In this document: in pieces, positions 5,544 to 51,798 of the stretch | How positions within the stretch are numbered: the stretch's first letter is position 1 | Layout: every line of letters starts with the position of its first letter | Assembly: GCF_032854445.1 (NCBI RefSeq) | Contig: NW_027018101.1 | Location: forward strand, 18,137-82,136 | DNA length: 64,000 nucleotides | From: Liolophura sinensis | Lineage: Eukaryota; Mollusca; Polyplacophora; Chitonida; Chitonidae | Direction: 5' to 3' | Position numbers and translations under genes: made by a program | The notes under the pieces: model-generated | Database searches by the model: none | What the model was told of the DNA's origin: nothing | Seen by the model: the letters and a program-made list of their open reading frames with translations, nothing else

Positions 5544-5609
<66 letters not shown>

Positions 5610-24887: not shown

Positions 24888-24930
24888 ATGGCAGTGACTT
24901 TATTTGAAATCATTTATTTGGTAACAGCAG
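24888..24930 (+). CDS. Receptor exon 1: signal peptide
   Basis: Reads MAVTLFEIIYLVTA plus one base, donor GTTAGT, phase 1. Joined to exon 2 it gives a hydrophobic leader continuing V-V-S-V-S-S-Q before the first Ig strand. Chosen as the nearest upstream ATG with a hydrophobic run, a donor and the required phase; an alternative first exon cannot be excluded. Confidence 0.6.
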
Positions 24931-27900
24931 GTTAGTAGATTTTTTAGGTTTTTGGTATCTAGTCAATTGCTGTACATGTGCATTTTAGGGTTTAGTCATT
25001 TGTTGTATGGAGACGCTTATTATTTAACGATATTGAATTTGATTATTTTTAGTATTGCATGTCCATTCATGTGGTCATACGCATGAAAATTCAATTTTTC
25101 AGAATAATAAAACATAATCAGCAAAAAAGCAGCCTTCAGAAAAGGTGAAAACGCTGCGGTTGTTTGCGGGAAGTTCTAACACATATATAGCATGCAGCAC
25201 AAAGTATACTGAACTAAAATATAAAGGCTCGAAGAAATTTTATATTGTTTTATCTCACTATTAAATAACGTGTTAACTCACCAATTGGAGTAAGCATTCA
25301 TTATCAATTGTGACTTCAATTTCCACCAGAATTTCACATCTTAGGACAATAATCCAGGAGCTATGATAACGTGAAAACACAGTGGCCGGTAATCACAGTT
25401 CACAGCAGTCATTACGGAATGTGTCCACCTTTAGCATCACGAAGAACGTCAAATGTGATTACGGACGTGATTCACGCTGCCATAAATTATGAAAATATGA
25501 TCAAATTGATCATGTATAGTTTATCGTTACCATCTTGTGATTATTTTGGGACATATTATCAGTATGCATGTTTACAGAAACATTTTGCAAATATAAATCT
25601 ATACCTCAGTGAAATATAGGGCCAGATGTATTGCAGTTAAAGGGAAAATATTCCTTTGTCGCTGAATAGTCTTATGTGATAGGTCAAATATGCAAACCTG
25701 GCGTGCACCTCGCACCTTCACATATGCCACTTGGTTAAAATTAATCTAGTTTTGTCAAGGTAAGCTTTATAATGTTTTAATTCATGATACAATGTTGTTT
25801 AATTGGTACATGTTTAATTCACATACATATAATACTTATTTCATCCAAATAATCCAAATTTAATAACAATAATTAAGGTAATAATCATTGCATTGTCAAA
25901 GCGCTAGAAATCAGTTATGCTGACATGTTAGGAGAGCTCCATTGCACCCAAATTTAGGGTACATGTGTAAGGTTTTTGCAGGATGCAAAATGCATGCATG
26001 GTTTCTTGTATATACATGTACATTTACACGCATTTGAAATAATGAACACTCTTTAAAAGTAGCCATTAAGAATAAATAATTTTGTACATGTCTGTTGTTT
26101 CCATTTTAGTAGTATCCGTATCCAGTCAGTCAGTCACAACACCGGGAGATGTCATAGCCGGTCGTCCATTTACTCTGGGGTGTAAGATAACCAGACCGGC
26201 AGGTGACAGGAATATAACGACCTGGTATTACAGCTATAATCAGAACTTACGCCAAATATACAACTCCCGTGAGTGTACACCGTCAATACCAGTATTAGAA
26301 CAATCACCAGCAGGGTTATCAGGGGGATGTCAACACGTCAACGGTGAGGAAGTTTACACAGTGACGATACAGAACGTCACGCAAGACACAGCCCGGGCCA
26401 CATGGGCATGTCAGTACAAAGGAGAGTATATCAAGGTTACCCTGGATGTTAAAGGTGATTTGTGAGAAGTCAGTTTTATTATAGAGAAACACATAGCTTA
26501 GCACAGTATGTTTTTCACAATGACAATTTTTTTCGGACTGGTAACAGTTCAAGGTCAGTGCAACATGAATAACTGATCTCCTCCGCGTACTGAGGTGAAT
26601 AATATCGCCTGTGATGTTCCAAGTATTCTTTCAATGTGTTCAACATTTAATCGCGTTTCAAATCAAGACAGGCTTCAAAAGTGCTCCATGTTTGAGACAT
26701 GGGCTCCATGATTAAGACGTGCTCTATCTTTAAGACATATGCTTTATCGTTAAGACATGTGCTTAATGTTTAAGACATGTTCTAAGCTTGAGACATAAGC
26801 TCCATGTTTAAGACATGTGCTCCATGTTAAAGACATGTACTCCATGTTCGAGACACGTGCTCCATGTTTGAGACATGTGCTCCATGTTTAAAACATGTAC
26901 TTCATGTTTGAGACAATTAAAATTTAAAAACATAATTGCATTATGCCCCACACTTACATAACTATTGTCTCATTACATGCATCGCACACTTTCATGACTA
27001 TCGTCTTATTACATACATCGCACACTTACATTACTATCGTCTTATTACATACATCCAGCTTGTCTGTTGATGAATTTTTGGTATTTATATATAGGTTACG
27101 TACACGTGTATGCACCGTAATAGTTCACCTAACACGTACAAGCCACAGCCGTTACACCTATACGCCGATGTGTACATCCGAAAATCCACTTGATAACCAT
27201 TTGCTTATAAAGGAACATTATACAGACTCGCGTTAGTTTTAAGCAGATATTTCGGTCGTTTAAAATTATTTTTATCAAAGAAAAAGTAGCTCGTCCATTT
27301 AAACCAAACTCTAATTTTTTGTCAAAATGTTTCTGAAAATAATTGAAATAAAAATCGTTTGTCTTTATGTTATTAGGCAAACAATTGTTTCTTAGACATA
27401 AAGATTTCTAAAAAAAAAATGTAATGCCCGACTAGGGGCTCCTCAGTCTACAGTCAAAGATACAAATATTTAAGTCTGTTAAAACCTTGTTCAGTGTGAC
27501 GGACCATTTAAGCACAAAACACAAATTTAGCAACATTCACTGGTCTCGATCTCCGCCTTTATTATATGGCATTCTGCATGTCGTCAAAGAGATGTTTTAC
27601 AAGGGTTGTTGTTGTGTCTTGAGTGAGTTTCTGGTCATTTAGATAGATACCAGAGTGGACTGGCTGACAGCTATGCCACGCAGTCATTGTGAGAAGGCTA
27701 ATAAGGATTACTTTATCTACAAATGGCAAGAGAAATGAACAGATGTCAGATAAAGGGAAAATTCTGTTTCTTGTCCAGCCTTCTCTAATGATCACTAACT
27801 TTAATCCACCGTCGTGTGAGACCGATGTTTTAACTTGTCACGTGATTTTACACCACTTTCCTGTAAACATGCATCTTTTCCGTTTAGGTCGCTGCCCCAT

Positions 27901-30900: not shown

Positions 30901-33900
30901 GCCAGTGGCTTGCGCATGATTATCTCAAGTAGCTTGTGATCGCTGTGTACTGGCACTTGTTTTCCATAGATATAAGAATAAAACTTCTCACACCCAAACT
31001 CTCCGTGGCTCAGTCGGTTAGCACGCTAGCGCAGCGTAATGACCCAGGAGCCTCCGACCAATGCGGTCGCTGTGAGTTCAAGTCCAGCTCATGCTGGCTT
31101 CCTCTCCGGCCGTAAGTGGGAAGATCTGCCAGCAACCCGCGGATGGTCGTGGGTTTCCCCCGGGCTCTGCCCGGTTTCCACCCACCATAATGCTGGCCGC
31201 CGTCGTATAAGTGAAATATTCTTGAGTACGGCGTAAAACACCAATCAAAAAAAAAAAAAAAAAATCTCACACCCAAACTGAATTGGCACAATTTCTTTTT
31301 CTATCTGTTCATAGTTTTGTTGTGTCGGCGTAAGTGCTCGCGAGGCGTAGACAACTGGTTTGCCTTCTTGAAGAATGACTGCGCCAAGGCCTGATTTTGA
31401 CGCGTTTACTTGGAGGGTTACGTCCTTGGTGACGTCATAGTATGCTAATACCGGTCCTGGTGTTCGCGTGATGATGGATTTCACCTGTTCAAATGCTTTG
31501 TCACAATTTCACGGCCTTCCGACGTGAGAGTGTGCCCGTAGAACTTTGTCTCTGTGACCCCTATTTCCATTTTTGCCGAATTCAGGTACAGCTTTTTGTC
31601 ACGGTATCTCTGAAGTAGTACTGGAGAATTAAATATTGTGAGTTTACTGCTTTCATCATCTAGCTGGATATGTCAGTACCCGGACTTTGCGTCGAGCCGA
31701 CTGAAGTATTTCGCACCTGCCAGTTTATGTGTTATGTCCTCCGTTGTAGGAAGTTGATAGTGCTCTCGCACTATGTTTTCGTTCGAATCCTTCGGGTCGA
31801 TACATATCCGCAGTGTGCTGTCTTTTTTCGCGACGGCCACCATTGAGCTTACCCATTCTGTGGGCTCGTCAATGGCCCTGATAACGCCCATTGACTCCAT
31901 ACGTTTTAGTTCATTTTTGACACGATCCCTTAATGCTACGGGTACGCGCCGTGGTGCGTGCACAACTGGTAGTGCGTTGTCTTGCAGTCTAATTTTGGCT
32001 TTTGCTGGAAGACAACTAAGCTCTGTGAAGATACCCTTGTTCTCCTTGACCACTGATTCTTTAGTCAAAAACTGCTTTGTGATTGGTTGATCAATTGTCA
32101 TAACCACTTTCACCAGGTGTAGCAGATTACAGGCGTTGAAACATATGAGGGGTTTAGCTGGGCTATCCACAACTACAAACTCTAAGTTCTGAATAATGTT
32201 TTTGTACTTGCATGGTACCGTGCATTTACCTGTGACTTTGAGTTGATCACTACCATACCCTGACAACTTGGGGAGAAAGCGTGTTTGTAGAGGTACTTCG
32301 CTTGACAGTACTCTTTCGTATGTTTCTGTGGGAATGCAGTTTTCCTAAAAATAACACATTGTCTTCAGTGTCAGTCTCTGTATTATGATTATCTTCACAA
32401 ACAACATAAGCTGATTTAGACCTACACATTATCCTGAAGTGATTTTTGATGCCACATTTTATACAAGTATAGATAAATAAAGAACTCGAAACAGCGTCTC
32501 CATTCAGACAGTCACTCTATTCCACTCACTTCGTCACCTTGAGCAGTCCCGCAATATGTTACTTACGTATTATTAGCAAATCGCTATGCTGCAACGTCAT
32601 GAATATTAATATAGGGGAGCTGATCATGTGATGTAAACATACACATGTGCTATGATGTAAACAAATGCACGTGGCAAACTATGACAATATCACAGAGGAT
32701 TTCTTGATTTTTGATGAAGCATGTATATTGTGTGTGGAAGCGTATATAAAGTGACAAGTCTTTGCGTGTACTCTTGTTCAGAATTACGTTTTAAGCGAAT
32801 AAGAATGTAGATAAAAGTTAAGAAAATAACTGTATTCATCGGTTTGATGCCTTTGTTTGCTTTAATTTTTCGAGTGAGAAATGTATGCTTAAATTAAACC
32901 TATCGTTAGGTTTTGTATTGTTTTGTAGGGCTTGTTTATCCTTGCTGGTGCGCAGAAATTTATTGTGTGTCAGGTCCATATTTAAATAAGCAATGATGCC
33001 GCCAGCTGTGAAGTTGTCCGCACCACAACACATTTGTATATCTAAACCCATGGTGAACATCCATTGTATGTAGACGAGGTCATGAGATCTAGTTAGATTG
33101 AATGTATCTCTCAATCGGTTTTTGATGATAGATTTGCCCTCAAATATCGGAATATGCAACAAAACTATTCTGATGCGAAGTATACAGTGCTAAGAATCGT
33201 CTGTTAGAGTACAACAGCTGGGTTAGTGTATATTTTTCCGCAAACCATAGAAACAATTTCAGTATGCATTGCATCATATATTAGAGATATTTTATGTATC
33301 ACAGGTATTTACAGGCAGAGAGGTCATCGCCCAGATGCAAATCATTTATACCCATTATGACTAGAGTTTACACAGAATCCAAAACTTCTTGAGATTGTGT
33401 TTTGGAACTAAAGGTGCTGCAGGCATAGCTGTCTCACCGGAAGTATGTTCAAATGACAAATATAAAGATGACAAACTTTGACTTAGTTCAGACTTGCTGA
33501 ATTTGACAGTTTGCCTTTATAAATATTTTCCGATTGTCATCAGTCAATTCAAGAATCAAGAAAAATGGGTAATATTTCATGTTCTCAGTACCCGTGACCC
33601 AGCTGACTTTGACGAACCTTCCAGATACAGTGCTAGCTGGTAAACCCACCAACGTAACCTGTGTGACCTCGGCCAGTAAGCCCCCGGCCTTCATAAGGGC
33701 GTACATTGGAAGATCCGGTAATGTCCGGGAGATAGGCCCGCGTGCCTGTAACCAAGACTCCAGCTCGGTACAGGTCACAACCCGGACATTGACGTTTACA
33801 TCTAGTGTCGAGGAGAACAGAGCTGAATTGTACTGTAACGCCTCCAACAGTGTGACGGATCCTCCTGTACGCTCAGAAGTCTACACAATAAATGTACAGT

Positions 33901-36900
33901 GTGAGTATTCACTTGAATGGCAATCACAGTGTACATATTATGTGAGTAGTCATATATATAGAGAGAACAAGGTCTTAAATGCATCCATGCAATTTCGATG
34001 TGTAGCTAATATGTATGTGGTCTGCTGAGTAAAAATATTTGAGACCAAAGTTTGCTGATCTTAAATAAATCATCATACCCAGGTAAGCTGGATCAACCCA
34101 TGTAAAGACAATGCTTAAGTATGATTACTTTTCTGGAAAACCTATAAGAACAGTTGGAACGGAACCACCTCCGAAGTCGGGGGATAAGGATAAACTTAAG
34201 CCAGGGTCCAGGGATCCTCCTGTGGAAAATGACTGCGTTGTAGTAAAACAGTGTCTTGATATGTGCTAATGCAGCTACACGTTTTAAGCACCGCGGGATA
34301 ATTTCGTCGGGAACTTTTCCGTGGCAAAATTTTAAAGACTCACGGCAGTGCCCAGTTTCAAATGCCCTATTTTAGGGGATCGGTCACCTGGGCGATACCC
34401 TCTTCGAATCAGTCAGGGCCCAGTTTCATAAAGATATTCACCCTGTACCATAATCGCACATATAGGACAATGGTGCGGCAATGGTGACGTACAGAATATC
34501 TTACGACAAATGTACGATCAAAAATGTCGTACAATGCTTTGTGAAACTGGGCCCAGAAGAAAATATCAAAAACATGTAGCCCTATGTCATATGACTAGGC
34601 GGTCATTATGAACTTATATGAAAAATGTTAGCGAATATCAATCTTTTCCATAGCGAAGTTAGGCCTTAACTGGTTAGTGAAAGTAGTACAAAAGTGAACG
34701 AACTGTAAATAAAGCAAAATTGGATCAAACAAAAACATTTCTGAGATCTCCTTGTCTCATGGATTGTCTCTATTCAGAAATCGTTCGAATTTTCTTCACA
34801 ATTTAACATGTGGCCTAAATCCTGATGAGACTGCAAAGCGTGTCACAGCAATTTGCAGTGGGAAAGGGTTCAAGTGTGCAACAGTGCATTGTTTCTGTCT
34901 TTTATTCAAACTTAAATAATCTCTAGGCTGGCCTATATCACTGGTCATTTGGTATGTGATACCTGGTAGTCCCGGGTTCAAATCCAAGACATTATTTTTT
35001 CACTTTTGTTTCGCTTTTTCTGCTGACCGCAGTCGTATAAGTGAAATATTCTTGAGTACGGCGTAAAACACCAATCAAATAAATAAATAAATAAATAAAT
35101 TTTAACAAAGACTGAACGTTTTTATAAGTGTTTTTTATTATTATCTGCTTTAAATCTATACTATAACTATATACTATAAGGGAGGCTGCAAAAAAGACAT
35201 TAGAGAAAATGATGCAAATGAGATAAGCAATTTCACCTGTTGTTCTAATTAATCACTTTACAGGCTATAATGTTTTCTCCAGAATTAATTTTATTCACTC
35301 CCGGAAGTATTAAGCAGCAACATTTGTTTACTAAATCGGTCCCGTCTTATTTATAAATACCCGTTTTTGACAGGGATCCAGGCTAATAAAGCTTTTTTTT
35401 AAATTTACTTGTATAGATATGTTAGCTGTAGACACCTGAAACATTCAAGTCTATGATTAACTTGTACTTGTATGAGATTTGGTTATACACATGCATTTAG
35501 ACTTTGGTGGCTTTAATGTTTCCACGGTTATAGTTAGTTCTTTGTTGGTTTGTGTTAAAACTCATTAAGGGAAATGATTGTAATTATTGACCCGAAATAT
35601 ACATTTGAATTGACGACCCTTATATAAATGTCTCTTTGGAAGCATAGATGTATGTGCTATGTTGATCAACGTATTCCATACAAGTATTGGGCCTCTGTTT
35701 TGTTTTTAGATTTTCACCTTTAAGAAAACTAAATAAATCAATAAATTGTGCACAATAAACTGGGGATAATTTCGTGTAAGATACGGCCATCAAAGCTACA
35801 AGTATGCCGGCGTGGTTAACGCAGATGTGTACCTTATACCTCTCCATTTTCTTTCCCAGCTCGACCACTGTTTCCCAGACAAAGCAACCAACAAGCAGCA
35901 GCCCTCGGTGAAAATGTCAAACTGATGTTTAAGTTTGTGTCTTATCCAGCCTATGTGAACCTCAAGTGGTATAAACTTATCAATGGTACAGCTGAAAAAC
36001 TAACGGTCTCTAACTCATCCAAGAGTAAATACCGAAGTCGCGTGACAGAGGCTAACCACGAGTTTCTGCTTAACAAGGCCAAAGTCCTGCTTTCCGGTCT
36101 CGTGGCGGAACTAGAAATCTCTGACGTTCAACCTGATGATTTTGGGGAATACAAATTTGTTGTTGAAAATGACGTGGGATCTTCTGAGACCATCATGTCT
36201 TTTAACTTAATAGGTAATGTATTGTTCTTGCTGCTCGGGTAAATCTTGAAGGTTAGTCACTTTATATGACTGATCACTTCTTTCACCCACGTGCACACAC
36301 TTAACAGATCTCCTTCGTGTACGGGAAACAATCCTGAATACGGCAACAAACACCAGTCAAACAAATAAACATACATGGTATATAAACAAGTTACTAATCA
36401 CCGCATTTAGATAAAGTCTGCATGCTCAGGTCATTGGTTTTCAATAGTATGAAGTAAGTTACATATACATGCACACTGTAACTCAAACTGAAGTAGGTGT
36501 ATTGCAAGACAAATGTACAACGACTTATAGCTGGAAAAATTCAGTTTTGTGAAGTCGCTAGGTCACAAAGGGCACACAGCTAATTACTAGAAACATGCTA
36601 CATGAAAAAATAAAACATACCTAGATAGTATAATGCTGGTCGCCCTCGTATAAGTGAAATATGCTTGAGTATTGCCTTAAACACCAATCAAATAAATAAA
36701 TATACATTCTCCATATTGTTTCATTGTGAATGTGTTGCTAAATCTGATAAAACCCTCTTAGCGTCCCTGGCACCGGTAGTGAACTTGTGCACGTCGACGA
36801 TCGATTTAATCATACCAAATTGAAATTCAAACGCATCCTAGACAAAATTATCACGAATTTTCGAAAAGAATTTGTAAAACAATTATTAATTGCAGTTTAA

Positions 36901-39900: not shown

Positions 39901-42900
39901 AGTGGTGTGCAATCAACCAGACATTATGAAAACGTTGCAGGTGAGATGTGGCCATTCTGTGGATCACTCAGTGGTTTGGGTTGTAATAACTATTTATTGA
40001 TTTATTTATTTATTTATTTATTTACTTATTTCTTTAATGGTTGTTTAACGTCATTATCAGGCATTTTCATTTCTACATTGACGTTCAGGTGTATCAGTTA
40101 AGGAAACTGGAGTGAACATGTGTTTTAGTGCGCAAACGATCACACGGGCAGTGAGAGCGAGGAAATCTGCATACAAGTTTCGTGTACAAAGTCGGCTTCG
40201 AACCCGCACTTCGTGTGTCCCAGTGATTAATGTTTCAATGCCATGTTGTCTGACTGTATGGCATATCTAATTGGTGACAGGCAGAAAAAACTTCATTCAC
40301 TTTGGTCACAGAAAAAGAAAGCCTTTACGTACGAGCACTTGCGTCTCTTACCTACACTTACAGCTGTTAACGGAAGGTACATGTAGTGTAGAACATACGT
40401 TTCCGCAGTCTCTGACAATACTACAAACTTACAGACTTATAAGTAATAAATTTATTTATCTAATTAACAAACATACAGTATAGATTTAAAACAACTTTTT
40501 CTCCTCTTTTCCAGGTACTGAGTCACCGACAAACGAACAGTAAGTAAGGCGCATAAACACCCACTTAAGCCGAAGCACACACTCCAGATCTATATCCCTA
40601 ATTTAAAAGTAGACACTGGCATTTTGCTTTTAGTGATGATGGTATCTTTAGGTCGAAAACAATCAACATTTAAAATCAATTTTACGTTCGATTGGACACT
40701 AAAGAGTTGTCATTTCAAATACTGAAGTGGTGGAAAGAACACAAATAAGATCGATCAGGACAATTTTGTGATTCTAAATTTGCTTGCAAAACCACAATTT
40801 GTTTTTAAAAAAATTGAGATACTGGTTGTGTGCTTAAAACTATGCTTAAAGATTCCTTTCACAGTAACGGGTAATATTTCACATCTTGAGACAGATGAAA
40901 ACAAGATACTTGTTTAACTGAGCCATTATCTGTTTAAAAATCACGAATACATTCCATTTTGTAATTTCTTCCAGTGAAACCACAGCTTCTGTTGGCCATA
41001 CGGGGCCCTATGGAAATGTTGATCTGATACCCAGCTCCTCACCCTTAGGTTAATATGCCCCATTAAAGAGGTCATTGTTAACCGACTGAGTTTACCCCGC
41101 CGTGTGTTAGAGCAAAGATCTGAAGTTCTCATTCGTGCAATGTTTTATGAACAAAAGAGCTGACACAATTAAGTCGGTCTCTCTGATATTTCAATAACAC
41201 GTCAGCCCAGTGGCATGTACATAGCATGTTTCCAGTATAAGATCATGTTTCCAGTAAGAATCCATAATGCTTTCAAGGGTATTGTTCCAGGTGGGTCATT
41301 TTATAACTGGGTTGCCTAGTGGTAGCGTGTCAGCCAAGTACAATGAACCAGGAACCTTTCAGCCATGTGATCTCTGTAAGTTCAGATCCATGTAAATCAT
41401 TCTGGCTTCTGTGGTCGCACCCGTGCCAGCAGCGTGCGGGTGGCTATGGGTTTCCACCGGGCTCTTCCCTGCTTTGTCCGCCATTAATAATCACTAGTAA
41501 TTATTGCTAGTAATACGAGCCGCTGTTATAAACGTAAAATATTCTTGAATACGGCATAAAATCAAAACTCCATTTAAATAGATAAATAAATAAATAAATA
41601 AATGTTTCCTTACTTGAATAAATGTTTATATGTGTTTGATGATTATAAAATGAAGTCAAAGCACCACGAAATCGCCCTTTTTACTCTTCCCGGTGTTGTG
41701 TCCGTTAAATTAAAGGAAAACCATCAGATCATTTATTTGTTGATTGATTTGATTGGTGTTGTACGCTGTACTCAAGAAAATCAGATTAAGTAGATAAACA
41801 AATAAAATAGGTAGCTTTCTTGGCGGGCCCATATAGAGGATCTATAAATAAGTATAGGGTCCGTTAAACAGAAGCCAGAATTTCCGGGAAAGCCAATCCT
41901 AACTTGGTTGTGCACACACATTACACAGCTCCCACCTTGACTCTTAACATGTTCCAATGAACTACCACAATCGACATTTGCTTTTCCGCTCACACACATG
42001 CTAATGGTTAGCCTCACAGCAATGTACTTATGCTTCTGGTATGGATCGACCGATGAAATTATCTGTAAAAGTCACAAAAAGTGAATCCTGACTTACCACT
42101 ACTTTTTCACATACAGTTATGACTAGAATGAAAGTTTGAAGTCTCTCCTCCGAAATCATATCACCCAACAAGCAGAACAAAACAAGAAGAGGCAGCTCCG
42201 AAAGCAGAAGAATCTTTTTTCAACTGTTCTGTTGACTAAAAAATAGTAGAGGATTACATTCGACCTAGAACCATGTAAGACGTTTTCAGTTTGACCGCTA
42301 AACGTAACAAGTCCTTTTGTATTATCTGTAACGAACGTTAGACAAATTTGTTGATATTAATCTACCGTTCACCTGTTTCACCATGTTGCGGAGGTACGAA
42401 TGGCACCTCTGTCCTTCGGGAAACATCTTAAGTTCCCCGACGTTCAGCTCCTAAAATTTATCTATCGTTCGTCTACTTCAAATAACACTTTTGTGAAGCA
42501 TTTTCTTTTTCAGACGCCCATTTTCTGATAAATGTAATCAGAAATAGCCGTCTAACTTTTTTGATGGTCACAGGGTACAGCATGACATTTTTAGCACTAG
42601 CAATAAAAGAGTTCCAATTTGAAATTCCCCTGTTGTAAACTGTGGCAAGAAATTGTCAGCGAGGTGAATGCGCAAATTTGCCATGGCGAACATCACCGCC
42701 CCCAAATACTTGAATTTAAAAAGCAACCACTGTTCCATTGCTAGCCTGTAAAATATCATGCATAAATCCTGAACACGGCGAATACAACCTTTAAACAATC
42801 AGATGTGAATGAAATTATGCTCTGTCATGGATCATTCTGTTTTTGTCCACATAAACGGCTTTACTTTATGCCTATGATTTTCAAATAATGTTGCTGAAAG

Positions 42901-45900
42901 AGCTTTACAAAAATAAATCGAAACCCAAAACCAATAAGCCAATCTTATACTCCCGTTTTTTATTATATAAGCCGATCTAAACTTGTAAATATCATCTAAG
43001 CGAATTTATCCTTCCGAAAAAAGTGCGTATTAAACGTTGTCAGCATGAATTTGAGAAGTTCATGTTACAGTTGACTAGTAATTTAGGTGGCACAGCAGAC
43101 AAAAATCTCTAATGGGGGCTCCTCAGCCCTTTGCAAAGGGAAGTAAATCTTGTACCTCATTGCACAGTATGGTCTTCCTTTACTTTATAAAAATTCCCAT
43201 GATGTAAATAACAATACAAGTGACCATGGATAGCATTAGCTATTACTGTAATTGAAGTAGGCAGACGGCTCTTCTTTCCCATGTGTAACAAGATTTACTT
43301 CCCTTTGTAATGGGCTAAAGTGCTCCATTATTATGGTTTGCAGACTCCTGAATTCCTGGCACATTTTCGATTTTTATAGATTTGTCCTTGTTACTAAAAT
43401 AACATTTTGTCGAAATATCCCCCTTTACGCCTAAAATGAGTTTTCCATTAGCTGATAATCCAAATAATTTAATCATGGAACCATACTGGATAGTATATTT
43501 AGCTTAAGTTGTAACCATATGTACATGTATCTCTATTATGAAATCACCCAGTTATGCCTACTTTCATGATGGATTTCAGGCCCACCGGTCTACACTGAGG
43601 TAAACAAGCCAGAGACGGCCCACAAACCGACAAAAGGTTTGTTAGCTGCTATGAAAACTGTTGGGCGTTTTCTTTCTTTTAACCCTCTTCCCCGACATAT
43701 CACTTAAAATTAAAAAATCAGTGCATACATGCCGTATATGATCGTGATATAACATCAGTGATAAAGATGACCATCGAAGTTGCTCTGAACATTATATACA
43801 CATGCAAATTTGAAGGTTTAACAAGTATCTCTCTTGTTTACATCCCCAAGCACTCACTCACTCACTCACTCTTGTTATTAATACTTTTTGACGTATTAAG
43901 ACAAAGAAGCGTAACGGTGGCTAGTTGTGGTCGGCTAGGAAAGTCTAGGATTAACGAATATACGCCATTTTTTGGCATTAGTCAGCGCCCGATGGGGGTA
44001 AATATGGCGTATGTATTCTTTTTACTTATATACTTATATAATTTTCTGGTTTGTTGTACACGTGTTCGATCTTAAAAATATATACAACGTATACACGAAA
44101 TACAATAAACTGTTTTGTATTTTTCGTTGTATGAGGTAATCTTGGATTTTTTCTTCTGTGATTAGTGGTCTGTAAAACAAGAGAAGCATTTCCTGTTGGT
44201 AGTCTTTGGGTTTTCTGACGTGCACGAAAGAATTTTAGTCCACAGTTTACCCTGATATAAACTGATAAATGTCTAAGTAAATTTATCCTTCCGGATATAT
44301 GGGATTAATCACGTCTATGGTGAAATCCCATATATTACAGTACCTTACAGTGTAACGCCTTTAATTTCAGAACAAGCACCACCGGTTTACGCTGAAGTAA
44401 ACAAACCAAAGAAGACTGGCCAAACTGCGAAAGGTCAGGTTGATAGCTGCTTTTTACTATTTTCTCTTTACTATAATTTGTATTTTTTTAATTCACATTT
44501 AAGAGATTTTTCAAGGCTTCAGCAGCAAAAGTACTCGCTTTCTGCGGAGGTAAAAACATCAAATATGTAATTTTTGTATATCAGCAGATTATTCAAAATT
44601 TGACATGTTTTGTTATACGTTGTGTGTGTACAAAAGGGAAATACGGAAAGAGTAACTACAATATGAAAATGACCTAGTAATTACATATCACAATTCATTT
44701 TTAGCACTAAAGGGCCCGGTGTATGCCGAAGTGAACAAAACTCATAAGAAAGCCAATGAGGAAACAGGTTTGTTTTCTTTAAATGCTGGCTGACATTGGA
44801 TTTATGTCAAACGTTAATGTTAATGCAAGTGCGAGATTATTTTCCTCACAAACCTTGTACATGAAACCTGATCCTGAACAAGCCAAAGCTTCACCCTAGT
44901 CTGCGACATAATGTCTTACAATGTAATATCCGTTCAGTTGGAGAGAGCTCAGTTCTTTAAGCTCCTTACTTGTCATAACACTGCATTTTATACCAATTCC
45001 ACGATAGTAGTGAATGTATAAATTCCTACTCTTTAAGCATTTACATGAAGAGATAAATCTTAAAAATCCCGAGGTAAATTGACAAGAGTCTGGATTTCCA
45101 CCGTCTGTTGTGTATGACCATTTCCCCCTCTGTCATACTGTTGTCCCTGTTTTGCTGTATTCTCTTACACCGTACTATATTTCTGCGCAGATCAGCATTC
45201 TGCTAGACTAAGCATCACCCAGATCTGGTATCTTGGTATTGTTTTCACATAAATATTTATTACATGTGATGACAAAACTGCATTTTTAGAAATTCTTGAC
45301 CAGTGATGTCTAATAAACTGCCAATATCATGAGTGAATCTTTAAAACTAATTCCCCTTAAACTTTGGTGCTAAGGAATGTATGTTTCCCCTATTTAAGCC
45401 TTTACATGAACAGTTAGAATATCCTAACTGACCTTAACGGACATGATTTCCGATTTCATCGGTTACGTGTGACAATGTACTGACAATGTATCACATGCAC
45501 TGTCGTCCCTGCTCTGGATTTGCTCTGAAAATTGCAGTCATTTATTTTATTTTCCCATTTGTTTTGTTTACAATGGATGAATAAATGTCAAATCAGATTA
45601 AGGCCCATTTTTCGGTTTACTTTTATGAAGGTGCCTTCGGTAAAGCTACGGGGATCTCCAAGCCAAAGCCAGGGATATCAAAAGGCAAGTCGACACTTCG
45701 GACGAATTATCACCTAAGCAATATGTTTTGCCTGTTGGAAGTGTAGTATAGTCGTTATGCATGTTTGTATGTGTAGTCAGTTAGAATGTATTTATGTGTA
45801 GTTAGTGTGTGTGTGTGTGTGTGTGATAAACCCCTAAAATGTTCTATCGAACGTATTGAGCTTGGCTCTCAAAGATTGATCACTAAATGTTCTCTCATTT

Positions 45901-46522
45901 AAATCATAATTATGTCTTTACCTGTATTGTGTTTTTAAGCAAAAGAGTCATGCACTTTGTATATAGCTTAGTGTCTCTTTGTGCTCAAGTTGCTATATTT
46001 ATCATAAAAATCTCATTATAATTTGGGATTATTTAACAGGAAAACCTACGCCTGCTAACAAGGCTGGTGTAATCAGTGGCAAAAAGAAGGATGGAAATGG
46101 TGAGTGTTACTATGTAAATAAATAATTTATTGTATCGAACCTGAAAAATATTCGCAGTAGCACGCTCATGTTAGCAGCGTGTAGATTCAAGGCAATTACA
46201 GACGTTACTGAGCTGCAAAAATATTGGAGAGTATTTTGTTTTTATGGTGTAATTATAGTTGAGCCATTAGTAGCATATTGTTTACAGATTAGGAGGCTGA
46301 ATGAGACTGTTCATTTATAAAGTGGCGGTGAAGTGATTGACTGCTCGATGTATGTCTTCATTGTTGGTTATAATTTAGCAGGAATACAAATATAGAAACA
46401 ATCAAAACAAAAAGATGAAAGCAGCAATGAGAAACAAGTTTAAGATCGTCCATTTTATTGGGAACTCGACATCTTCTGTTTCTATTTTCCAAGCCTTTTG
46501 AAAATTTATAAACATTAGACAC

Positions 46523-46578
<56 letters not shown>

Positions 46579-49475
46579 ATTATGAAAACTAACATACGCA
46601 AAAGAAAAAAAGGCTAACGCTTGAACCCCTGACTTGGAATTACGATGTTATAGCTGGTAGAAGAAATAGTTCTATAGGTAAGTAAATGTATAGATATGTT
46701 TTAGTTACATATACTGTTTTATGCTCTATGACAGCCGGCTATGGACCAGCAGAGGTATGTACAGAGCTAAGTGATCACGTGATGTCTTTTTTCATTCATT
46801 ACACTTCGTGAAAATTAACAGTTTTCTTATTATCTTCAATTCATGTGTACACCGGGCAATTTTGACCTACCATACTAGACAGAATCACAGACTTCTCTTG
46901 TTTTATCACATGAATATTTTTAAATAATTTAAATGCCATTCTTTGAAAACTTACTATACCATTGGCCTGTGATTATTATGTTCATCTTACAATTGTTAGA
47001 GATGTAAGGGATGTTATTTAGCAAATTTCACATTGATGTTGATCCGATTAGCACATTTGAGTCCGATCTTCCTTTTTTAACTTTCAACAAAAGAAATAAA
47101 TTGGTGATATTAGTATAAACATATTATGGACACATTTGGCGAACTGTCTCCAATATAATGTTAATAATATAAATTAATCATTAGAGATGATAAGAAGATA
47201 AAGATATCTGATAACCTCTTCATCCAACGCTGTTGAACAATCGTTCTCTGTTGTGTATTGGTAACTTTGCATCTACATATCTCGTCTATTAGCATTTGTT
47301 ACATTCTGTGTAGTCTGATGATTTTAAGATACGTCACAAGTCATTTATTAAAAGTAGTATATCAAACGCCTTCGCTCTAATTTCGTTAAATTCTACAGAG
47401 CGTTCAGTGTCCTATTCATTTTCGCTTAACCAAGGGCTAGGTGCCTTTATGAACAGTTGAAATCTAAAAGAAACTGAAGTATCTGAATTTGTGTTCGACT
47501 TATATTATCAACGTCGTATAAGTGAAATATTCTTGAGTACGGCGTAAAATACTAATCAAATAAATATATTATCAAATGAAAACGAGTTGGAAATTTCAGT
47601 TGTATGTCTTGTCTGGAATATCAATGTATAAACAGTTGTAATCAAAGAGAAACTGAGATACCTGTTTTATCATGGACAACTTAATTGTGTACTGGCAAGG
47701 TACATGTACGTTATTTGAACACTGATTTCACTTATTTGCCGAGAACATTCCGTGCGTCATCGTGAACAGCGTTGACTGCTTCTCTTTGCTTGATTCCTTC
47801 CTAGTTTTGTACTTTATTATTGCTATCTGATTTTGTCACCATGGTTGACTGCTTCTCTTTGCATGATTCCTTCCTAGTTTTGTACTTTATTATTGCTATC
47901 TGATTTTGTCACCATGGAAAGCAGTAGTGGTCATATGTTTTCTTTCCACAATGTGGCACATTTTTATTTTGTTTATTTCTTTATTCATTTCTTGTTTAAC
48001 TGCATACTCAGTTTTCATTCATACGATAGCGGTCCGTTTTATATTTGAAACAGGAGAGGTCGTCATAAAACTCCGAAGCATGGCAAGTTACTAACAAACT
48101 TTCCCACACGTACATGTATGTATGCATGTATATATAAGTTGGGGTTTTACGTCGGTTATTGAAATATCGTACTGAAGATACCGGACATGACATCCCACCC
48201 AGTCATACTATACTGACTCTTGCACAACCAGTCATGTTTTATTGCTCTGACTTCTCGTTGGTGAGCGCCAAGAGAACCAGAAACAAGTGTGATTTTCAAA
48301 GTTTTCGGTACGGTCCGCCATGAATCGCGGGTTTCCGGACCTCGAGGTGAACGCTCTAAAAACTAGGCCACCGAAGCGGTTCACCTTACACGTCTGTGGT
48401 CACTCAGGCAACACAAGCAGTGTGGCACATTTTACTGGGATATGCAGTACACTGTACAATATAATACCTGACTTAAAACAACGTTTGAGGTGAAAGTTGC
48501 CTGGTGGATAAGCAAGCAATGTAGCCTTAGTATGACGTTTAAATCCGATTTAGTGTAAGAGAAAATTTGGACGTGCCCAGCTATTCTCAGGTTCTTCCTG
48601 GATAAGATGTTGCTGGAAATGAATATTCCACACATGATCTTTACCTCAGTCTAGATAAACTGTTTTCTGAGGTTTACAGGTTCGTGCTTTGTCTTTACAC
48701 AGGCCAAAGCTCTGCTAACACCCTTGATAATGCGGCTTTTACTGGGGATGAAGTGATGTATTCTAACTCTGGAGAAGTTGAACGAACGGAACCATCTGGC
48801 AGACCTGGTCAGGTACATGTAACTGTCAATCTCATTTGTTATGTTTTTTCTCGTGTTTAATTCAGACATCTGATGAGACCAATATTGCTCTGTTATGTAC
48901 ATGTAAGTGGCAAAAATACTCTACGGCAATCTACAAGGTCTCAACGAGGCGTTGTTGTGTACAGGCTCATTTTTCCTCGATTCAGAGAAACGAGGTGATT
49001 TAACACTAAAATGTATACCATTGTCCAAGAAGACAAAGGGGAATAACTCTTGGGCAAATGAGATAAAGCCTTGTATGACATAAGGATACAGGTTTTAGAT
49101 ACTGACATACTATACATGGATATAAAACATGAATAAAACACAGGTGATACATATAACATACATATAAACTAACGTTCCAGAATAGAATGTAAACTTTCAA
49201 TAGGACAGAATTCGAACAGAAGGGGTTAAATGGTTAAGGATCCGTTTGAGATTGATCTCCCGATATTTTTGTTGTTATTCTTTGCTAAATTTCAACTATT
49301 GCAGATAAGAGGTCCCCACGACCTGGTATACGCAGACACGGACTTCGTGGGCACCCAACCCATCATGCACCCTGCTGAGAACACAACCACCTACGCCAGC
49401 ATTGCGGTTGGGCAGGTGGGACCGCCAGTTGTATATGACAATGATGAAGAGGACGGCCATTCGAACAGTTCCTAA
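24888..49475 (+). CDS. Type I transmembrane receptor: 3 Ig domains, FN3, tyrosine-motif cytoplasmic tail (17 exons)
   Basis: Exons: 24888-24930, 26110-26454, 33589-33900, 35860-36213, 37013-37303, 37930-38037, 38638-38662, 39876-39940, 40515-40539, 40975-41048, 43580-43636, 44371-44433, 44705-44767, 45631-45684, 46040-46099, 48703-48812, 49305-49475. They total 2220 bases, 739 codons plus TAA, with every junction phase-compatible. Order of parts: signal peptide, Ig V/C2-like, Ig C2-like, Ig I-like without the core disulfide, fibronectin III, one transmembrane helix followed by RRRQK, then a tail with nine candidate tyrosine motifs. Known families with this plan (nephrin-like, CEACAM/Siglec-like and other Ig receptors) act in adhesion and in recruiting SH2-domain proteins after tyrosine phosphorylation; by analogy this is a plasma-membrane signalling receptor, with ligand unknown. 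I assign no orthologue. A Ty3/gypsy element sits in intron 2. The start has a good context (GAAAATGG). Exon 1 and exon 14 are the weakest calls. Confidence 0.85.
24931..26109. other. Receptor intron 1
   Basis: No exon or repeat recognised. An 82-codon plus frame at 25371-25619 has no domain. Confidence 0.45.
26110..26454 (+). CDS. Receptor exon 2: Ig domain 1
   Basis: Phase 1-1, 345 bases, acceptor GTTTCCATTTTAG, donor GTGATT. Canonical Ig landmarks: B-strand RPFTLGCKI, C-strand TTWYYSYN, E-strand VYTVTIQNVT, F-strand ATWACQYKG. An extra cysteine pair (NSREC and SGGCQH) probably forms a second disulfide. Sequons NIT and NVT. Confidence 0.92.
26682..26915. repeat. ~20-base minisatellite, about 12 units
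   Basis: Imperfect units of GCTCCATGTTTGAGACATGT with numerous substitutions and slight length changes. Confidence 0.9.
26946..27056. repeat. ~37-base tandem repeat, three units
   Basis: Units share CACACTTACAT, ACTATCGTCTTATTACATAC and ATCG; the third is truncated. Confidence 0.8.
28631..28892 (-). repeat. 3' LTR, complete
   Basis: 262 bases; on the minus strand it starts TGTGATATTG and ends AAGTATTACA. The adjoining purine-rich run at 28893-28907 (minus strand TCAAAAGAAGGGGGA) is the polypurine tract. Confidence 0.9.
29429..29808 (-). pseudogene. Retroelement integrase C-terminal region
   Basis: Two overlapping minus frames: one with LREGEDVYMQQLSGKWKPAI, the usual chromodomain-proximal GK-W--a segment of Ty3/gypsy integrases, the other Pro/Ser/Thr-rich and ending SRVGRRIKPK. 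The frame change between them indicates a frameshift around 29.6-29.7 kb. Confidence 0.75.
29909..30956 (-). pseudogene. Retroelement integrase, frameshifted
   Basis: Upstream part (30956-30204): RNase H tail, then the HHCC finger (HAGHFGMELC with RCSTCLEH) and the start of the core (LATDLFEW, VADYYSHY). Downstream part (30280-29909), in another frame, carries IPENGSQYTSAEF, where the second catalytic Asp is Glu, and the final Glu in SNGLAEKYVG. The frame switch falls at about 30204-30280. Confidence 0.85.
31001..31264 (+). mobile_element. SINE, family A, complete, nested in the LTR element
   Basis: Starts at the tRNA-like head with A box TGGCTCAGTCGG (31006-31017) and B box GAGTTCAAGTCC, then body, GAGTACGGCGTAAAACACC tail and a poly-A of about 18. 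Flanked by a perfect 15-base target duplication TCTCACACCCAAACT (30986-31000 and 31265-31279). Opposite in orientation to its host element, it splits the RNase H coding region. The perfect duplication and clean poly-A suggest a fairly recent insertion. Confidence 0.97.
31245..31500 (-). pseudogene. Retroelement RNase H domain, interrupted
   Basis: Reads LAYYDVTKDVTLQVNASKSG, then LGAVILQEGKPVVYASRALT. The catalytic Asp expected before ASKSGLGA is Asn (codon AAC on the minus strand). Continues past the SINE into the 30956 frame. Confidence 0.85.
31560..32465 (-). pseudogene. Retroelement gag end, protease end and reverse transcriptase, internally deleted
   Basis: Zinc knuckle C-x2-C-x4-H-x4-C at 32465-32424 (CIKCGIKNHFRIMC), then retropepsin C-terminal sequence, then RT (VVHAPRRVPVALRDRVKNEL, MVAVAKKDSTLRICIDPKDS, FSRLDAKSGY). 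After a stop at DAKSGY, sequence resumes with HIQLDDESSKLTIFNSP and jumps to RYRDKKLYLNSAKMEIG: the segment holding the Y-x-D-D catalytic motif is absent. Confidence 0.88.
32466..32694 (-). repeat. 5' LTR, 3'-truncated
   Basis: Matches the 28631-28892 LTR from TGTGATATTG to CTATACTT with about 15 differences and small indels, then breaks off into gag coding sequence. Confidence 0.9.
32700..33588. other. Receptor intron 2, right part
   Basis: No exon recognised. A 108-codon minus frame (32836-33162) lacks a known domain. Confidence 0.4.
33589..33900 (+). CDS. Receptor exon 3: Ig domain 2
   Basis: Phase 1-1, 312 bases, acceptor CATGTTCTCAG, donor GTGAGT. B-strand GKPTNVTCVTSASKPP, E/F strands RTLTFTSSVEENRAELYCNA and sequons NVT and NAS. 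The pattern resembles C2-set (CD80-like) domains of nephrin-type adhesion proteins. The open minus-strand frame here is a shadow. Confidence 0.92.
34416..34554. mobile_element. MITE-like element with terminal inverted repeats
   Basis: 139 bases. Left end GGGCCCAGTTTCATAAAG; the right end reads GGGCCCAGTTTCACAAAG on the minus strand. No coding capacity and no clear target duplication. Confidence 0.85.
34900..35101 (+). mobile_element. SINE family A, diverged head
   Basis: B-box-like GTCCCGGGTTCAAATCC, a shortened body, then CGTATAAGTGAAATATTCTT and GAGTACGGCGTAAAACACC, ending in (AAAT)n. The A box is not clear. Confidence 0.75.
35860..36213 (+). CDS. Receptor exon 4: Ig domain 3 without the core disulfide
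   Basis: Phase 1-1, 354 bases, acceptor TTTTCTTTCCCAG, donor GTAATG. I-set landmarks: GENVKLMFKF, VNLKWYKL, LVAELEISDVQPDDFGEYKF, VVENDVGSSE. Both canonical cysteine positions are Phe (MFKF and EYKF), so this domain would fold without the B-F disulfide, as some Ig domains do. Confidence 0.92.
36214..37012. other. Receptor intron 4 with SINE tails
   Basis: Family A tails at 36638-36703 (GTATAAGTGAAATATGCTTG) and a diverged one at about 36315-36372; nothing else seen. Confidence 0.6.
37013..37303 (+). CDS. Receptor exon 5: fibronectin type III domain
   Basis: Phase 1-1, 291 bases, acceptor TCTAATATTCCAG, donor GTAAAT. FN3 landmarks: Trp in NVTWISCFDGG, QTFKLQYKKRGGNW, the pre-F Leu in EIVEGLEERAEYSFRVYGVN, and sequons NVT, NIT, NKS, NCT. 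The Tyr of the EYSFRVYGVN strand is conserved. A cysteine pair (TFCEN/ISCF region) may add a disulfide. Confidence 0.93.
37385..37676 (-). repeat. Inverted partial copy of the 39.5-39.8 kb sequence
   Basis: About 290 bases matching the reverse complement of roughly 39535-39797, ending at the shared CAATACCGTAACA. Possibly the 3' part of an LTR. Confidence 0.85.
37930..38037 (+). CDS. Receptor exon 6: transmembrane helix
   Basis: Phase 1-1, 108 bases. Encodes MLVPLAGGISGASVLLGVIV then VVVVIF, followed by the stop-transfer RRRQK; this fixes a type I topology. The acceptor is CTGTTCCAG; a second in-phase AG six bases on (GGTCCAG) could give a two-residue splice variant. Confidence 0.92.
38638..38662 (+). 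CDS. Receptor exon 7: 25-base juxtamembrane exon
   Basis: Phase 1 in, phase 2 out; acceptor TATTCTTTCAG, donor GTAAGT. Adds GSRSSGET. Same length and phases as exon 9 (40515-40539), suggesting a duplicated exon pair. Confidence 0.65.
38877..39797 (+). repeat. LTR-like sequence, possible solo LTR
   Basis: Begins TGTTATATATG (alternative starts at 38829 or 38849) and ends CCGTAACA, consistent with TG...CA ends; carries a TATA-like ACGTATATAAGCCG at about 38994. Its last ~290 bases recur inverted at 37385-37676. No coding region or target duplication found, so the start is uncertain. It lies in receptor intron 7. Confidence 0.5.
39876..39940 (+). CDS. Receptor exon 8: YENV motif
   Basis: 65 bases, phase 2 in and 1 out, acceptor TTGCTTCCCTCAG, donor GTGAGA. 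Reads KMRPDDVSSGVQSTRHYENV. Y-E-N fits the YxN rule for Grb2-type SH2 binding; whether it is phosphorylated is unknown. Confidence 0.8.
39990..40232 (-). mobile_element. SINE-like element, minus orientation
   Basis: (TTTA)n at the left, TGGTTGTTTAACGTCATTATC, and near the right a B-box-like GTGCGGGTTCGAAGCC on the minus strand. Related in plan to family B but diverged. Confidence 0.6.
40515..40539 (+). CDS. Receptor exon 9: 25-base exon
   Basis: Phase 1 in, phase 2 out, acceptor CTCTTTTCCAG, donor GTAAGT. Adds GTESPTNE. Confidence 0.65.
40975..41048 (+). CDS. Receptor exon 10: YGNV motif
   Basis: 74 bases, phase 2 in and 1 out, acceptor ATTTCTTCCAG, donor GTTAAT. Includes GHTGPYGNVDLIPSSSPL, where Y-G-N-V parallels Y-E-N-V of exon 8; the exon 9-10 pair mirrors the exon 7-8 pair. 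Confidence 0.75.
41293..41603 (+). mobile_element. SINE family A, diverged full-length copy
   Basis: Head GGGTTGCCTAGTGGTAGCGTG, B-box-like AAGTTCAGATCC, body GGTTTCCACCGGGCTCTTCC, tail AATATTCTTGAATACGGC and (ATAA)n. Short open frames inside are not genes. Confidence 0.8.
41604..43109. other. Receptor intron 10, no exon seen
   Basis: Holds a family A tail at about 41727-41778 (minus orientation). A candidate acceptor at 42512 lacks a credible donor. Confidence 0.45.
43110..43330. mobile_element. MITE-like element, TA-flanked
   Basis: Ends TAATGGGGGCTCC and, on the minus strand, TAATGGAGCACTT; inner parts of the inverted repeats share AAAGGGAAGTAAATCTTGT. About 45 bases of terminal inverted repeat with mismatches. 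TA ends fit a Tc1/mariner-type derivative, unproven. Confidence 0.8.
43580..43636 (+). CDS. Receptor exon 11: PVYTEVNK cassette
   Basis: 57 bases, phase 1-1, acceptor GATGGATTTCAG, donor GTTTGT. Reads GPPVYTEVNKPETAHKPTKG. First of three homologous tyrosine cassettes. Confidence 0.85.
44371..44433 (+). CDS. Receptor exon 12: PVYAEVNK cassette
   Basis: 63 bases, phase 1-1, acceptor TTTAATTTCAG, donor GTCAGG. Reads EQAPPVYAEVNKPKKTGQ then TAKG. YxxV matches the core of ITIM-type motifs, but the -2 residue is Pro, so it is not a canonical ITIM. Confidence 0.88.
44705..44767 (+). CDS. Receptor exon 13: PVYAEVNK cassette
   Basis: 63 bases, phase 1-1, acceptor ATTCATTTTTAG, donor GTTTGT. Reads ALKGPVYAEVNKTHKKANEE. 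The same cassette as exons 11 and 12. Confidence 0.88.
45631..45684 (+). CDS. Receptor exon 14: Lys/Pro linker with GC donor
   Basis: 54 bases, phase 1-1. Reads GAFGKATGISKPKPGISKG. Acceptor TTTTATGAAG is weak and the donor would be GCAAGT, a rare GC-AG intron. Frame and composition match exon 15, which supports it, but it may be skipped or inactive. Confidence 0.5.
46040..46099 (+). CDS. Receptor exon 15: Lys-rich linker
   Basis: 60 bases, phase 1-1, acceptor GATTATTTAACAG, donor GTGAGT. Reads GKPTPANKAGVISGKKKDGN; no tyrosine. Confidence 0.72.
47771..47917. repeat. 73-base tandem duplication
   Basis: TTGACTGCTTCTCTTTGC through CACCATGG occurs twice in a row with one substitution; young by its identity. 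Confidence 0.95.
48136..48382 (-). mobile_element. SINE with tRNA-like head, minus orientation
   Basis: Body GGGGTTTTACGTCGGTTATT; the head at the right reads CGGTGGCCTAGTTTTTAGAG on the minus strand (A box), followed by CGAGGTCCGGAAACCCGCGA. A different body from family A. Confidence 0.7.
48703..48812 (+). CDS. Receptor exon 16: YSNS motif
   Basis: 110 bases, phase 1 in and 0 out, acceptor GTCTTTACACAG, donor GTACAT. Reads GQSSANTLDNAAFTGDEVMY then SNSGEVERTE. Y-S-N again fits YxN. Confidence 0.78.
49305..49475 (+). CDS. Receptor exon 17: terminal tyrosine motifs and stop
   Basis: Phase 0 in, acceptor TTTCAACTATTGCAG. 56 residues with DLVYADTDF, NTTTYASIAVG and PPVVYDNDEEDG, then TAA at 49473-49475. 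T-x-Y-x-x-I in TTYASI matches the ITSM consensus used by vertebrate lymphocyte receptors; this is motif similarity only. Confidence 0.9.
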   Translation: MRGPHDLVYADTDFVGTQPIMHPAENTTTYASIAVGQVGPPVVYDNDEEDGHSNSS

Positions 49476-51466: not shown

Positions 51467-51798
51467 CAGGGTTCGCACGCCTCCTGGAAAGTCCTGGAAA
51501 CTCCTTGAAAAAAAAATCCGACCTGGAAACTCCTGGAAAGTCCTGGAATTTAAATAAAAACTCCTGGAAAGTCCTGAAATTCTGATAAATATAAAAAAAC
51601 TAGCCGGTCGGTAATCTAACGCTGTTTGTGCAAGGGAGATAACTTTGCATTTTTACGACATTAACGTATGTTATATATAAACCGTAAAGCGTTCTAACTT
51701 TTAACGACAGTTGGCTTTACTTTCTGTCTCGAGGTCCCGCCAAATTTCTCCGTTTCTTTGTTCTGATTACTGAAGTGGGTCACGGGCTATTTGTCATC

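What the first reader, a model, noticed from the sequence alone, without database searches (positions are those of the whole stretch)
24888..49475. Ig/FN3 receptor whose cytoplasmic tail is built from tiny one-tyrosine exons
Seventeen exons join into one 739-codon frame. The tail has eleven exons (seven of 25-65 bases), and nine tyrosines sit in SH2-type contexts: two YxNV, three [P]VY[AT]EV, a YSNS, VYADT, an ITSM-like TTYASI and VYDND. Exons 11 to 15 are all phase 1-1, so any subset can be skipped without a frameshift: a potential means of tuning signalling by splicing. This is a plausible invertebrate immune-type or adhesion receptor.
Basis: partly seen in the sequence, partly recalled or inferred. 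Interest (0 to 1): 0.78.

Follow-up and report, generated by a model that had tools for sequence, protein, structure and literature searches.

The report
Chiton immune-type receptor with modular tail
In a chiton (a marine mollusc) genome, this is one gene of a large, clustered family of cell-surface receptors whose outermost domain seems driven to diversify and whose inner signalling tail is assembled from small exons that related genes have gained and lost, much like immune recognition receptors of other animals.

Summary
The 17 exons rebuild exactly to 739 codons, and related loci in the same genome support every exon. Four sister loci keep the tail exons with the same phases and splice sites, including an unusual GC donor; one exon of one sister has an extra base. 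Corrections: eight, not seven, tail exons are 25-65 bases; six of eleven carry one tyrosine, four none, the last three. The assembly is very probably the chiton Liolophura sinensis. The gene belongs to a clustered family (59 Ig1 and 45 Ig2 matches). The outermost Ig domain shows diversifying change at 35 of 121 columns, Ig2 at 0 of 103. The tail carries an ITSM (18 of 19 last exons read), YxN and YxEV sites, but no canonical ITIM and no ITAM. One-tyrosine exons vary in number: the window has three YxEV-type exons, its sisters four; 491 bases holding the extra one are missing here, frame intact. Best reading: a diversifying recognition receptor that recruits SH2 proteins. Splicing control is possible but unshown; no RNA was seen. 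Against: tail dN/dS is 0.81-1.04 between window and sisters.

The parts
24888..24930 (+). exon 1, start codon and signal-peptide part (MAVTLFEIIYLVTA)
   Evidence: conserved upstream of Ig1 at C43 and C172 with the same donor phase
26110..26454 (+). exon 2, Ig1: outermost, hypervariable V/I-like domain, phase 1-1
   Evidence: 59 matches in genome; Ig_3 in 9 and V-set in 4 of 16 paralogues scanned, none for the window copy itself; diversifying columns
33589..33900 (+). exon 3, Ig2, conserved domain, phase 1-1
   Evidence: 45 matches; 0 of 103 diversifying columns
35860..36213 (+). exon 4, Ig3 (Pfam Ig_3), phase 1-1
   Evidence: 20 matches
37013..37303 (+). exon 5, FN3 domain, phase 1-1
   Evidence: fn3 21 bits, below the 25-bit cut-off; FN3-containing PDB chains
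37930..38037 (+). exon 6, transmembrane helix and stop-transfer RRRQK, phase 1-1
   Evidence: sequence
38638..38662 (+). tail exon 7, 25 bases, phase 1-2, no Tyr
   Evidence: found with AG/GT in 4 of 4 sister loci
39876..39940 (+). tail exon 8, HYENV (YxN, Grb2-type), phase 2-1; two copies at one C18 locus, C43, C172 and C1:60.74 Mb
40515..40539 (+). tail exon 9, 25 bases, phase 1-2, no Tyr
40975..41048 (+). tail exon 10, PYGNV (YxN), phase 2-1; AYEDV in three sisters, Tyr absent in one
43580..43636 (+). tail exon 11, VYTEVNK, phase 1-1
44033..44039 (+). point where 491 bases present in C310 and C1:60.64 Mb, carrying one further YxEV-type exon, are absent
44371..44433 (+). tail exon 12, VYAEVNK, phase 1-1
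44705..44767 (+). tail exon 13, VYAEVNK, phase 1-1
45631..45684 (+). tail exon 14, no Tyr, phase 1-1, GC donor
   Evidence: GC donor also in the four sister loci
46040..46099 (+). tail exon 15, Lys-rich, no Tyr, phase 1-1
48703..48812 (+). tail exon 16, VMYSNS (YxN), phase 1-0
49305..49475 (+). tail exon 17, VYADT, ITSM TTYASI, VYDND, stop codon

Best explanation
The window holds an intact gene of a large clustered family of chiton type I membrane receptors: signal peptide, three Ig domains, FN3, one membrane helix and a 260-residue tail. The outermost Ig domain varies most and probably binds variable ligands (non-self, or self/allotype markers), most likely on haemocytes or epithelia. Ligand-driven clustering would let Src-type kinases phosphorylate the tail; YxN sites would then recruit Grb2-type adaptors, and the ITSM plus YxEV sites SHP2- or SAP-type SH2 proteins. 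Docking sites sit largely on separate small exons, so duplication, deletion or (not shown) exon skipping can change valency without breaking the frame. Shown: gene structure, family, clustering, excess amino-acid change in Ig1, motif presence, conservation of the ITSM, and frame-neutral gain and loss of tail exons. Inferred: ligand binding, phosphorylation, partners, cell type, immune role and splicing control.
For: Exact reading frame. Family matches Ig1 59, Ig2 45, Ig3 20 (one exon may give more than one match), nearly all at C1:58.26-58.59, 60.49-60.79 and 62.79-62.83 Mb and on short contigs C18, C32, C43, C62, C93, C162, C172, C186, C310. Ig1: 35 of 121 columns with P(beta>alpha)>0.9, 32 of them at residues 29-65 or 97-108; lnL gain 17.9, against at most 5.2 and at most 6 columns in 40 null simulations; Ig2 0 of 103. 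With separate trees per part the N-terminal half gains 13.6 and the middle third 12.4. ITSM TxYxx[VI] in 18 of 19 last exons read. 8 of 9 tail tyrosines in YxN or Yxx[VILM] contexts. Clean absence of one YxEV-type exon in the window relative to sisters; exon 8 in two copies at four other loci.
Against: Tail dN/dS is 0.81-1.04 between the window and four sisters (all ten pairs: 0.37-1.09) and 0.88 for 36 codons of exon 17 against six C18 copies, so overall tail constraint is weak. Against the two nearest sisters, tail exons differ more (6.2-6.4%) than well-aligned introns (3.8-4.3%). Tyr columns are not clearly better kept than others among the sisters (9 of 10 invariant against 173 of 252). 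The YADT and YDND contexts are absent in the C18 copies. The two nearest sister loci have broken frames and no FN3 match. In two distant loci some tail matches lack the expected splice sites. The Ig1 signal is weak outside the middle: C-terminal half gains only 3.7, first and last thirds 2.7 each. No expression, ligand or phosphorylation data. Gene conversion between paralogues can inflate codon tests.
Confidence: 0.62

Rival explanations
1. A cell-adhesion or guidance receptor (PECAM-, L1- or Dscam-like in role) with homophilic binding and a signalling tail, not an immune receptor; diversity would serve cell identity.
For: Ig+FN3 architecture, with PDB relatives such as titin, a Cdon-binding protein, sidekick 2 and (E 0.02) Dscam; multi-exon tails with SH2 sites are known in PECAM-1 and Dscam.
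Against: Tens of clustered paralogue matches with diversifying change strongest in the outermost domain, weaker in Ig3 and none in Ig2, are more typical of immune or allorecognition families.
Confidence: 0.22
2. An endocytic or phagocytic receptor: the repeated Yxx[hydrophobic] motifs are AP-2 sorting signals and the YxN sites recruit Grb2, so exon number sets uptake rate rather than SH2 signalling.
For: Six of nine tail tyrosines fit Yxx[VI] (contexts); that such motifs can be sorting signals is recalled.
Against: The motif TxYxx[VI] is kept in 18 of 19 last exons read; AP-2 signals do not need Thr at -2 (recalled).
Confidence: 0.15
3. A decaying or non-functional copy (divergent haplotig or recent pseudogene) whose tail is drifting.
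For: The window lies on short contig C162; near-neutral tail dN/dS; nearest relatives C310 and C1:60.64 Mb have broken frames.
Against: The window copy is open over 17 exons with all splice sites; FN3 and Ig2 show median omega 0.34 and 0.40 across the family; against the two farther sisters, tail exons differ less than well-aligned introns (7.6% vs about 12%, p<0.001).
Confidence: 0.1

Closest known systems
PECAM-1 (CD31), vertebrate
   Same: Ig-domain adhesion/signalling receptor; cytoplasmic domain with eight exons subject to alternative splicing; variants without exon 14 cannot bind SHP-2 (passages of PMC5664058).
   Different: Six Ig domains, no FN3 (recalled), not a large clustered family (recalled); the chiton tail has an ITSM and YxN sites but no canonical ITIM; splicing untested.
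Hydractinia Alr genes / allorecognition complex
   Same: Clustered invertebrate IgSF family; 41 Alr members in one complex, with V-set and I-set domains (passages of review PMC11999971).
   Different: Cnidarian; homology not tested; no allorecognition phenotype known here.
Arthropod Dscam-hv
   Same: Ig/FN3 receptor with hypervariable Ig exons and many tail exons; Daphnia tails can include or exclude an ITIM or ITAM (passages of PMC6851185).
   Different: Dscam is a single long gene with more Ig and FN3 domains (recalled); here diversity lies mainly in many gene copies, and exclusive splicing is untested.
Biomphalaria FREP family
   Same: Diversified molluscan IgSF family in immunity (search listing of PMC7588048; passages of PMC11999971).
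   Different: FREPs carry a fibrinogen domain; Pfam found none here, and this gene has a membrane helix and tail.
PD-1 / BTLA-type ITSM receptors
   Same: TxYxx[VI] switch motif, docking site for SHP1/SHP2 (passages of PMC8631942).
   Different: No canonical ITIM in the window tail; several YxN and YxEV sites instead; no homology claimed.

Membership tests
Immunoglobulin superfamily | Ig fold domains by profile | tested here: met
   Ig_3 E 1.1e-9 and I-set 9.6e-7, both above cut-off; for Ig1, Ig_3 matches 9 and V-set 4 of 16 paralogues
Immunoglobulin superfamily | FN3 domain above Pfam cut-off (accessory) | tested here: inconclusive
   fn3 21 bits against cut-off 25; FN3-type PDB chains cover it, e.g. 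1x4z at E 2e-6
ITSM-bearing receptors | TxYxx[VI] in the cytoplasmic tail | tested here: met
   TTYASI in window; 17 of 18 last exons counted plus C186 printed, so 18 of 19
ITIM-bearing receptors | [SIVL]xYxx[IVL] in the tail | tested here: not met
   0 of 9 window tail tyrosines by the contexts printed; consensus
ITAM-bearing receptors | two Yxx[LI] about 6-12 residues apart | tested here: not met
   only one Yxx[LI] (YASI) in the tail (contexts); spacing rule recalled
PECAM-1 | six Ig domains | tested here: not met
   three Ig plus FN3; two further Ig types of relatives not found in the window
PECAM-1 | alternative splicing of tail exons | not testable with these tools
   no RNA data; phases permit it
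Hydractinia Alr family | sequence homology to Alr proteins | not tested
   no Alr sequence was compared
Dscam | long multi-Ig, multi-FN3 ectodomain | tested here: not met
   three Ig and one FN3; Dscam layout recalled
FREP | fibrinogen domain | tested here: not met
   no fibrinogen model among Pfam hits up to E 1

The most novel reading that the evidence does not exclude
Chitons hold a highly variable IgSF recognition complex in which both ends of the receptor are combinatorial: V-like Ig1 exons are multiplied (gene copies, and in-line exon arrays such as five tandem Ig1 exons at C1:58.336-58.343 Mb), and one-tyrosine tail exons are gained, lost and possibly skipped, so specificity and signal valency are tuned independently, as a molluscan counterpart of an allorecognition or NK-receptor complex.
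Probability: 0.2. Interest if true: 0.85.

Novelty: new variant of a known kind. Interest (0 to 1): 0.58.

Why it matters
Receptor families with a diversifying outer Ig domain and tyrosine-docking tails are well known in vertebrates (recalled) and, for Ig-based allorecognition, in Hydractinia. My one search for chiton work (terms chiton, Polyplacophora, immunoglobulin, immune genes) found no paper holding all four terms; searches with molluscan ITIM terms (two papers) and molluscan hypervariable Ig exon terms (twelve papers) listed nothing of this kind, judged by titles and abstract beginnings. The library holds open-licence papers only. If the receptor works as proposed, it shows how docking valency can evolve by adding or removing single-tyrosine exons while the frame is kept, and gives a concrete locus for testing self/non-self or pathogen recognition in a chiton.

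Tried and rejected
Considered a start codon inside the exon-2 reading frame (an in-frame ATG lies upstream of the acceptor); less likely than exon 1, because exon 1 with its donor is conserved at C43 and C172. Looked for further Ig domains of related genes (C1:60.51 and C1:58.27 Mb): not found in the window at E<=1. Considered by eye a skippable 20-base exon near 46.74 kb; it would shift the frame and was not pursued. AlphaFold of the single Ig1 exon gave mean pLDDT 48.7, too poor for a fold search, so none was run. A profile of 16 Ig1 paralogues against PDB gave only weak antibody and nectin-like hits (best E 0.014). The COX1 search and mitochondrial reading served only to place the organism; genes other than COX1 were named by eye. 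Whether C162 is an alternative haplotype of C1:60.6 Mb could not be decided: nearest intron mismatch is about 4%, against 1.24% heterozygosity in the genome paper. FN3 was not put through the site test, and the null simulations were run for Ig1 only.

Full report
What is there. Every acceptor is AG; donors are GT except a GC donor at exon 14. Pfam recognises Ig_3 and I-set above cut-off and fn3 just below it. Two wording slips: eight tail exons, not seven, are 25-65 bases; and six of eleven tail exons hold exactly one tyrosine (four hold none, the last holds three).

Which organism. The assembly has 632 contigs and contig C1 has 96,433,062 bases. These equal the scaffold number and longest scaffold in the passages I read of the Liolophura chiton genome paper (PMC11068029), later renamed L. 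sinensis (PMC12441733, whole text); the total length differs slightly (609,464,459 against 609,495,693). The mitochondrial strand split (nad1 and nad6 against cox1, nad2, nad3, cox3, genes other than COX1 named by eye) agrees with passages on the L. japonica mitogenome (PMC12111177). The name is an inference, a strong one.

Family. Searching the genome with single exons gave 59 matches for Ig1, 45 for Ig2, 20 for Ig3 and 27 for FN3 at E<=0.01. These are matches, not exon counts: some exons give two pieces, some hold stops, the FN3 list includes distant FN3s, and the tool calls its counts lower bounds. Nearly all lie at C1:58.26-58.59, 60.49-60.79 and 62.79-62.83 Mb and on short contigs; C18 carries six copies of the last tail exon. 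The last exon has 20 matches up to E 10; I read 19 of these, 16 of them on contigs other than C1. The C1:58 Mb group shares Ig1 and Ig2 but its FN3 is distant (26-29% identity); one such locus (L017) shows, by eye, further Ig-like frames and a short tail ending in HYEEL...VYENATVL.

Comparative support for the exons. Four sister loci (C1:60.64 Mb, C310, C62, C32) hold the tail exons in the same order. Of 46 exons entered, 46 have AG; of 42 donors 39 are GT and 3 are GC, the three being exon 14; lengths differ from the window only by multiples of three. I set the boundaries by homology; C310 exon 8, with one extra base, was left out, and C32 exon 14, present with a GC donor, was not entered. 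Exon 1 is conserved at two loci. In two more distant loci (one on C18, one at C1:60.74 Mb) the exon-13-like match lacks both splice dinucleotides at the expected places and the exon-16 donor lies elsewhere.

Modularity. The codon pattern VY[AT]EVNK occurs 18 times genome-wide against 1 for the reversed control; 17 of 18 lie at family loci. The four sisters carry four exons of this type (the extra one reads VYTEENK in C62 and VYADINK in C32); the window carries three. Alignment shows that 491 bases of C310, and likewise of C1:60.64 Mb, holding the extra exon, are absent at window 44033-44039, with flanks 92-94% identical. Four other loci (one on C18, C43, C172, C1:60.74 Mb) carry two copies of exon 8. 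So single-tyrosine exons have been gained and lost without frame damage. This is evolution of gene structure; it is not evidence of splicing regulation.

Motifs. Eight of nine tail tyrosines are YxN or Yxx[VILM] (5 of 19 before the membrane helix; Fisher p = 0.0036; shuffles P = 0.00005). That YxN is a Grb2-type site is recalled. The ITSM consensus (passages of PMC8631942) is met by TTYASI and by 18 of 19 last exons read; the exception, on C93, has Phe for Tyr (17 of 18 counted, plus the C186 exon printed there). No tyrosine meets the ITIM consensus and there is no ITAM. YADT and YDND are lineage-limited: the six C18 copies have Asp at the first and YGA[DE] at the last.

Selection. I extracted 40 Ig1 exons (33 fetched singly, five from L016, one from L017, and the window) and used 38, dropping one identical copy and one with a divergent end. 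My own grid version of a per-site codon test gave 35 of 121 columns with P(beta>alpha)>0.9, 32 of them at residues 29-65 or 97-108, and an lnL gain of 17.9 over beta<=alpha. In 40 null simulations the largest gain was 5.2 and the most columns 6. With separate trees the N-terminal half gains 13.6 (20 columns) and the middle third 12.4 (20), but the C-terminal half only 3.7 (3) and the outer thirds 2.7 each (4 each), so the signal is firm in the middle and weak elsewhere; two random halves of the sequences gain 8.0 and 8.8. Ig2 (32 sequences, one duplicate dropped) gave 0 of 103; Ig3 (14 sequences) 10 of 121 with a gain of 6.0, no simulations run. One-rate omega was 0.90 for Ig1, 0.50 for Ig2 and 1.10 for Ig3. 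Median pairwise omega: Ig1 0.75, Ig2 0.40, Ig3 0.62, FN3 0.34; in close pairs 0.99, 0.62, 0.62, 0.55. Gene conversion remains a possible inflator.

Results against a simple story. Tail dN/dS is 0.81-1.04 between the window and its sisters (ten pairs in all: 0.37-1.09) and 0.88 in exon 17 at greater distance. Against the two nearest sisters, tail exons differ more than well-aligned introns (6.2-6.4% vs 3.8-4.3%, p = 0.011 and 0.003), about as much as all introns (5.8-6.0%); against the two farther ones they differ less (7.6% vs about 12% in well-aligned introns). The two nearest sisters have broken frames and no FN3 match. So the tail changes fast apart from motif islands, as disordered tails with short motifs do, and some copies appear to be decaying.

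Mechanism. Best reading: a diversifying surface receptor that binds variable ligands through Ig1 and, after phosphorylation, recruits SH2 proteins through the tail, with docking number set by exon content. The nearest analogue in how the tail works is PECAM-1, whose cytoplasmic domain has eight exons subject to alternative splicing and whose variants without exon 14 cannot bind SHP-2 (passages of PMC5664058); Daphnia Dscam tails can include or exclude an ITIM or ITAM (passages of PMC6851185). It is not a member of either. The Hydractinia allorecognition complex, with 41 Alr genes (passages of review PMC11999971), is the nearest invertebrate parallel in genome organisation; homology was not tested.

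Verdict.

Noticed in passing
L016 (G000:C1:58334000-58343999), 2803-8976: Five tandem Ig1 exons, 91-96% identical in the stretches compared, mostly about 1.08 kb apart; four keep phase-1 splice sites, the fifth has a divergent end; a transposase-like ORF (type recalled) lies between the second and third. Could be a Dscam-like exon array or tandem domains; the next Ig2 match listed on that strand is about 65 kb on and holds a stop.
   Followed up: partly
window 9315-11415, minus strand: Three open stretches, two with weak Pfam ig/I-set matches (E 0.016 and 0.036), one with none; perhaps a second IgSF gene on the other strand.
   Followed up: no
window about 28650-32700: Retroelement-like ORFs on the minus strand (by eye integrase, RNase H and reverse transcriptase) with similar flanking stretches, inside intron 2, interrupted by a SINE-like repeat near 31.0-31.26 kb. 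Described only.
   Followed up: no
window 51688-54983: Two long ORFs that look like a hAT-type transposase (recalled); Pfam gave no credible match.
   Followed up: no
window 11656-12061 and 61479-62429: Minisatellites open in several frames (HTPSE-type repeat and a CLYWY-type repeat); not taken as genes.
   Followed up: no
L017 (G000:C1:58270900-58280899): Relative sharing Ig1 and Ig2 but with, by eye, three further Ig-like frames, a distant FN3 and a short tail with HYEEL and VYENATVL: a possible sister class with different signalling.
   Followed up: partly
G000:C99 (L109, L110): COX1 recurs about every 15.5 kb along the contig, as if the mitochondrial genome were assembled head to tail several times; probably an assembly artefact.
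   Followed up: partly
contigs C18, C32, C43, C62, C93, C162, C172, C186, C310: 16 of the 19 last exons read lie on these short contigs rather than on C1, which suggests a region too variable or repetitive to assemble, or unpurged haplotypes.
   Followed up: partly
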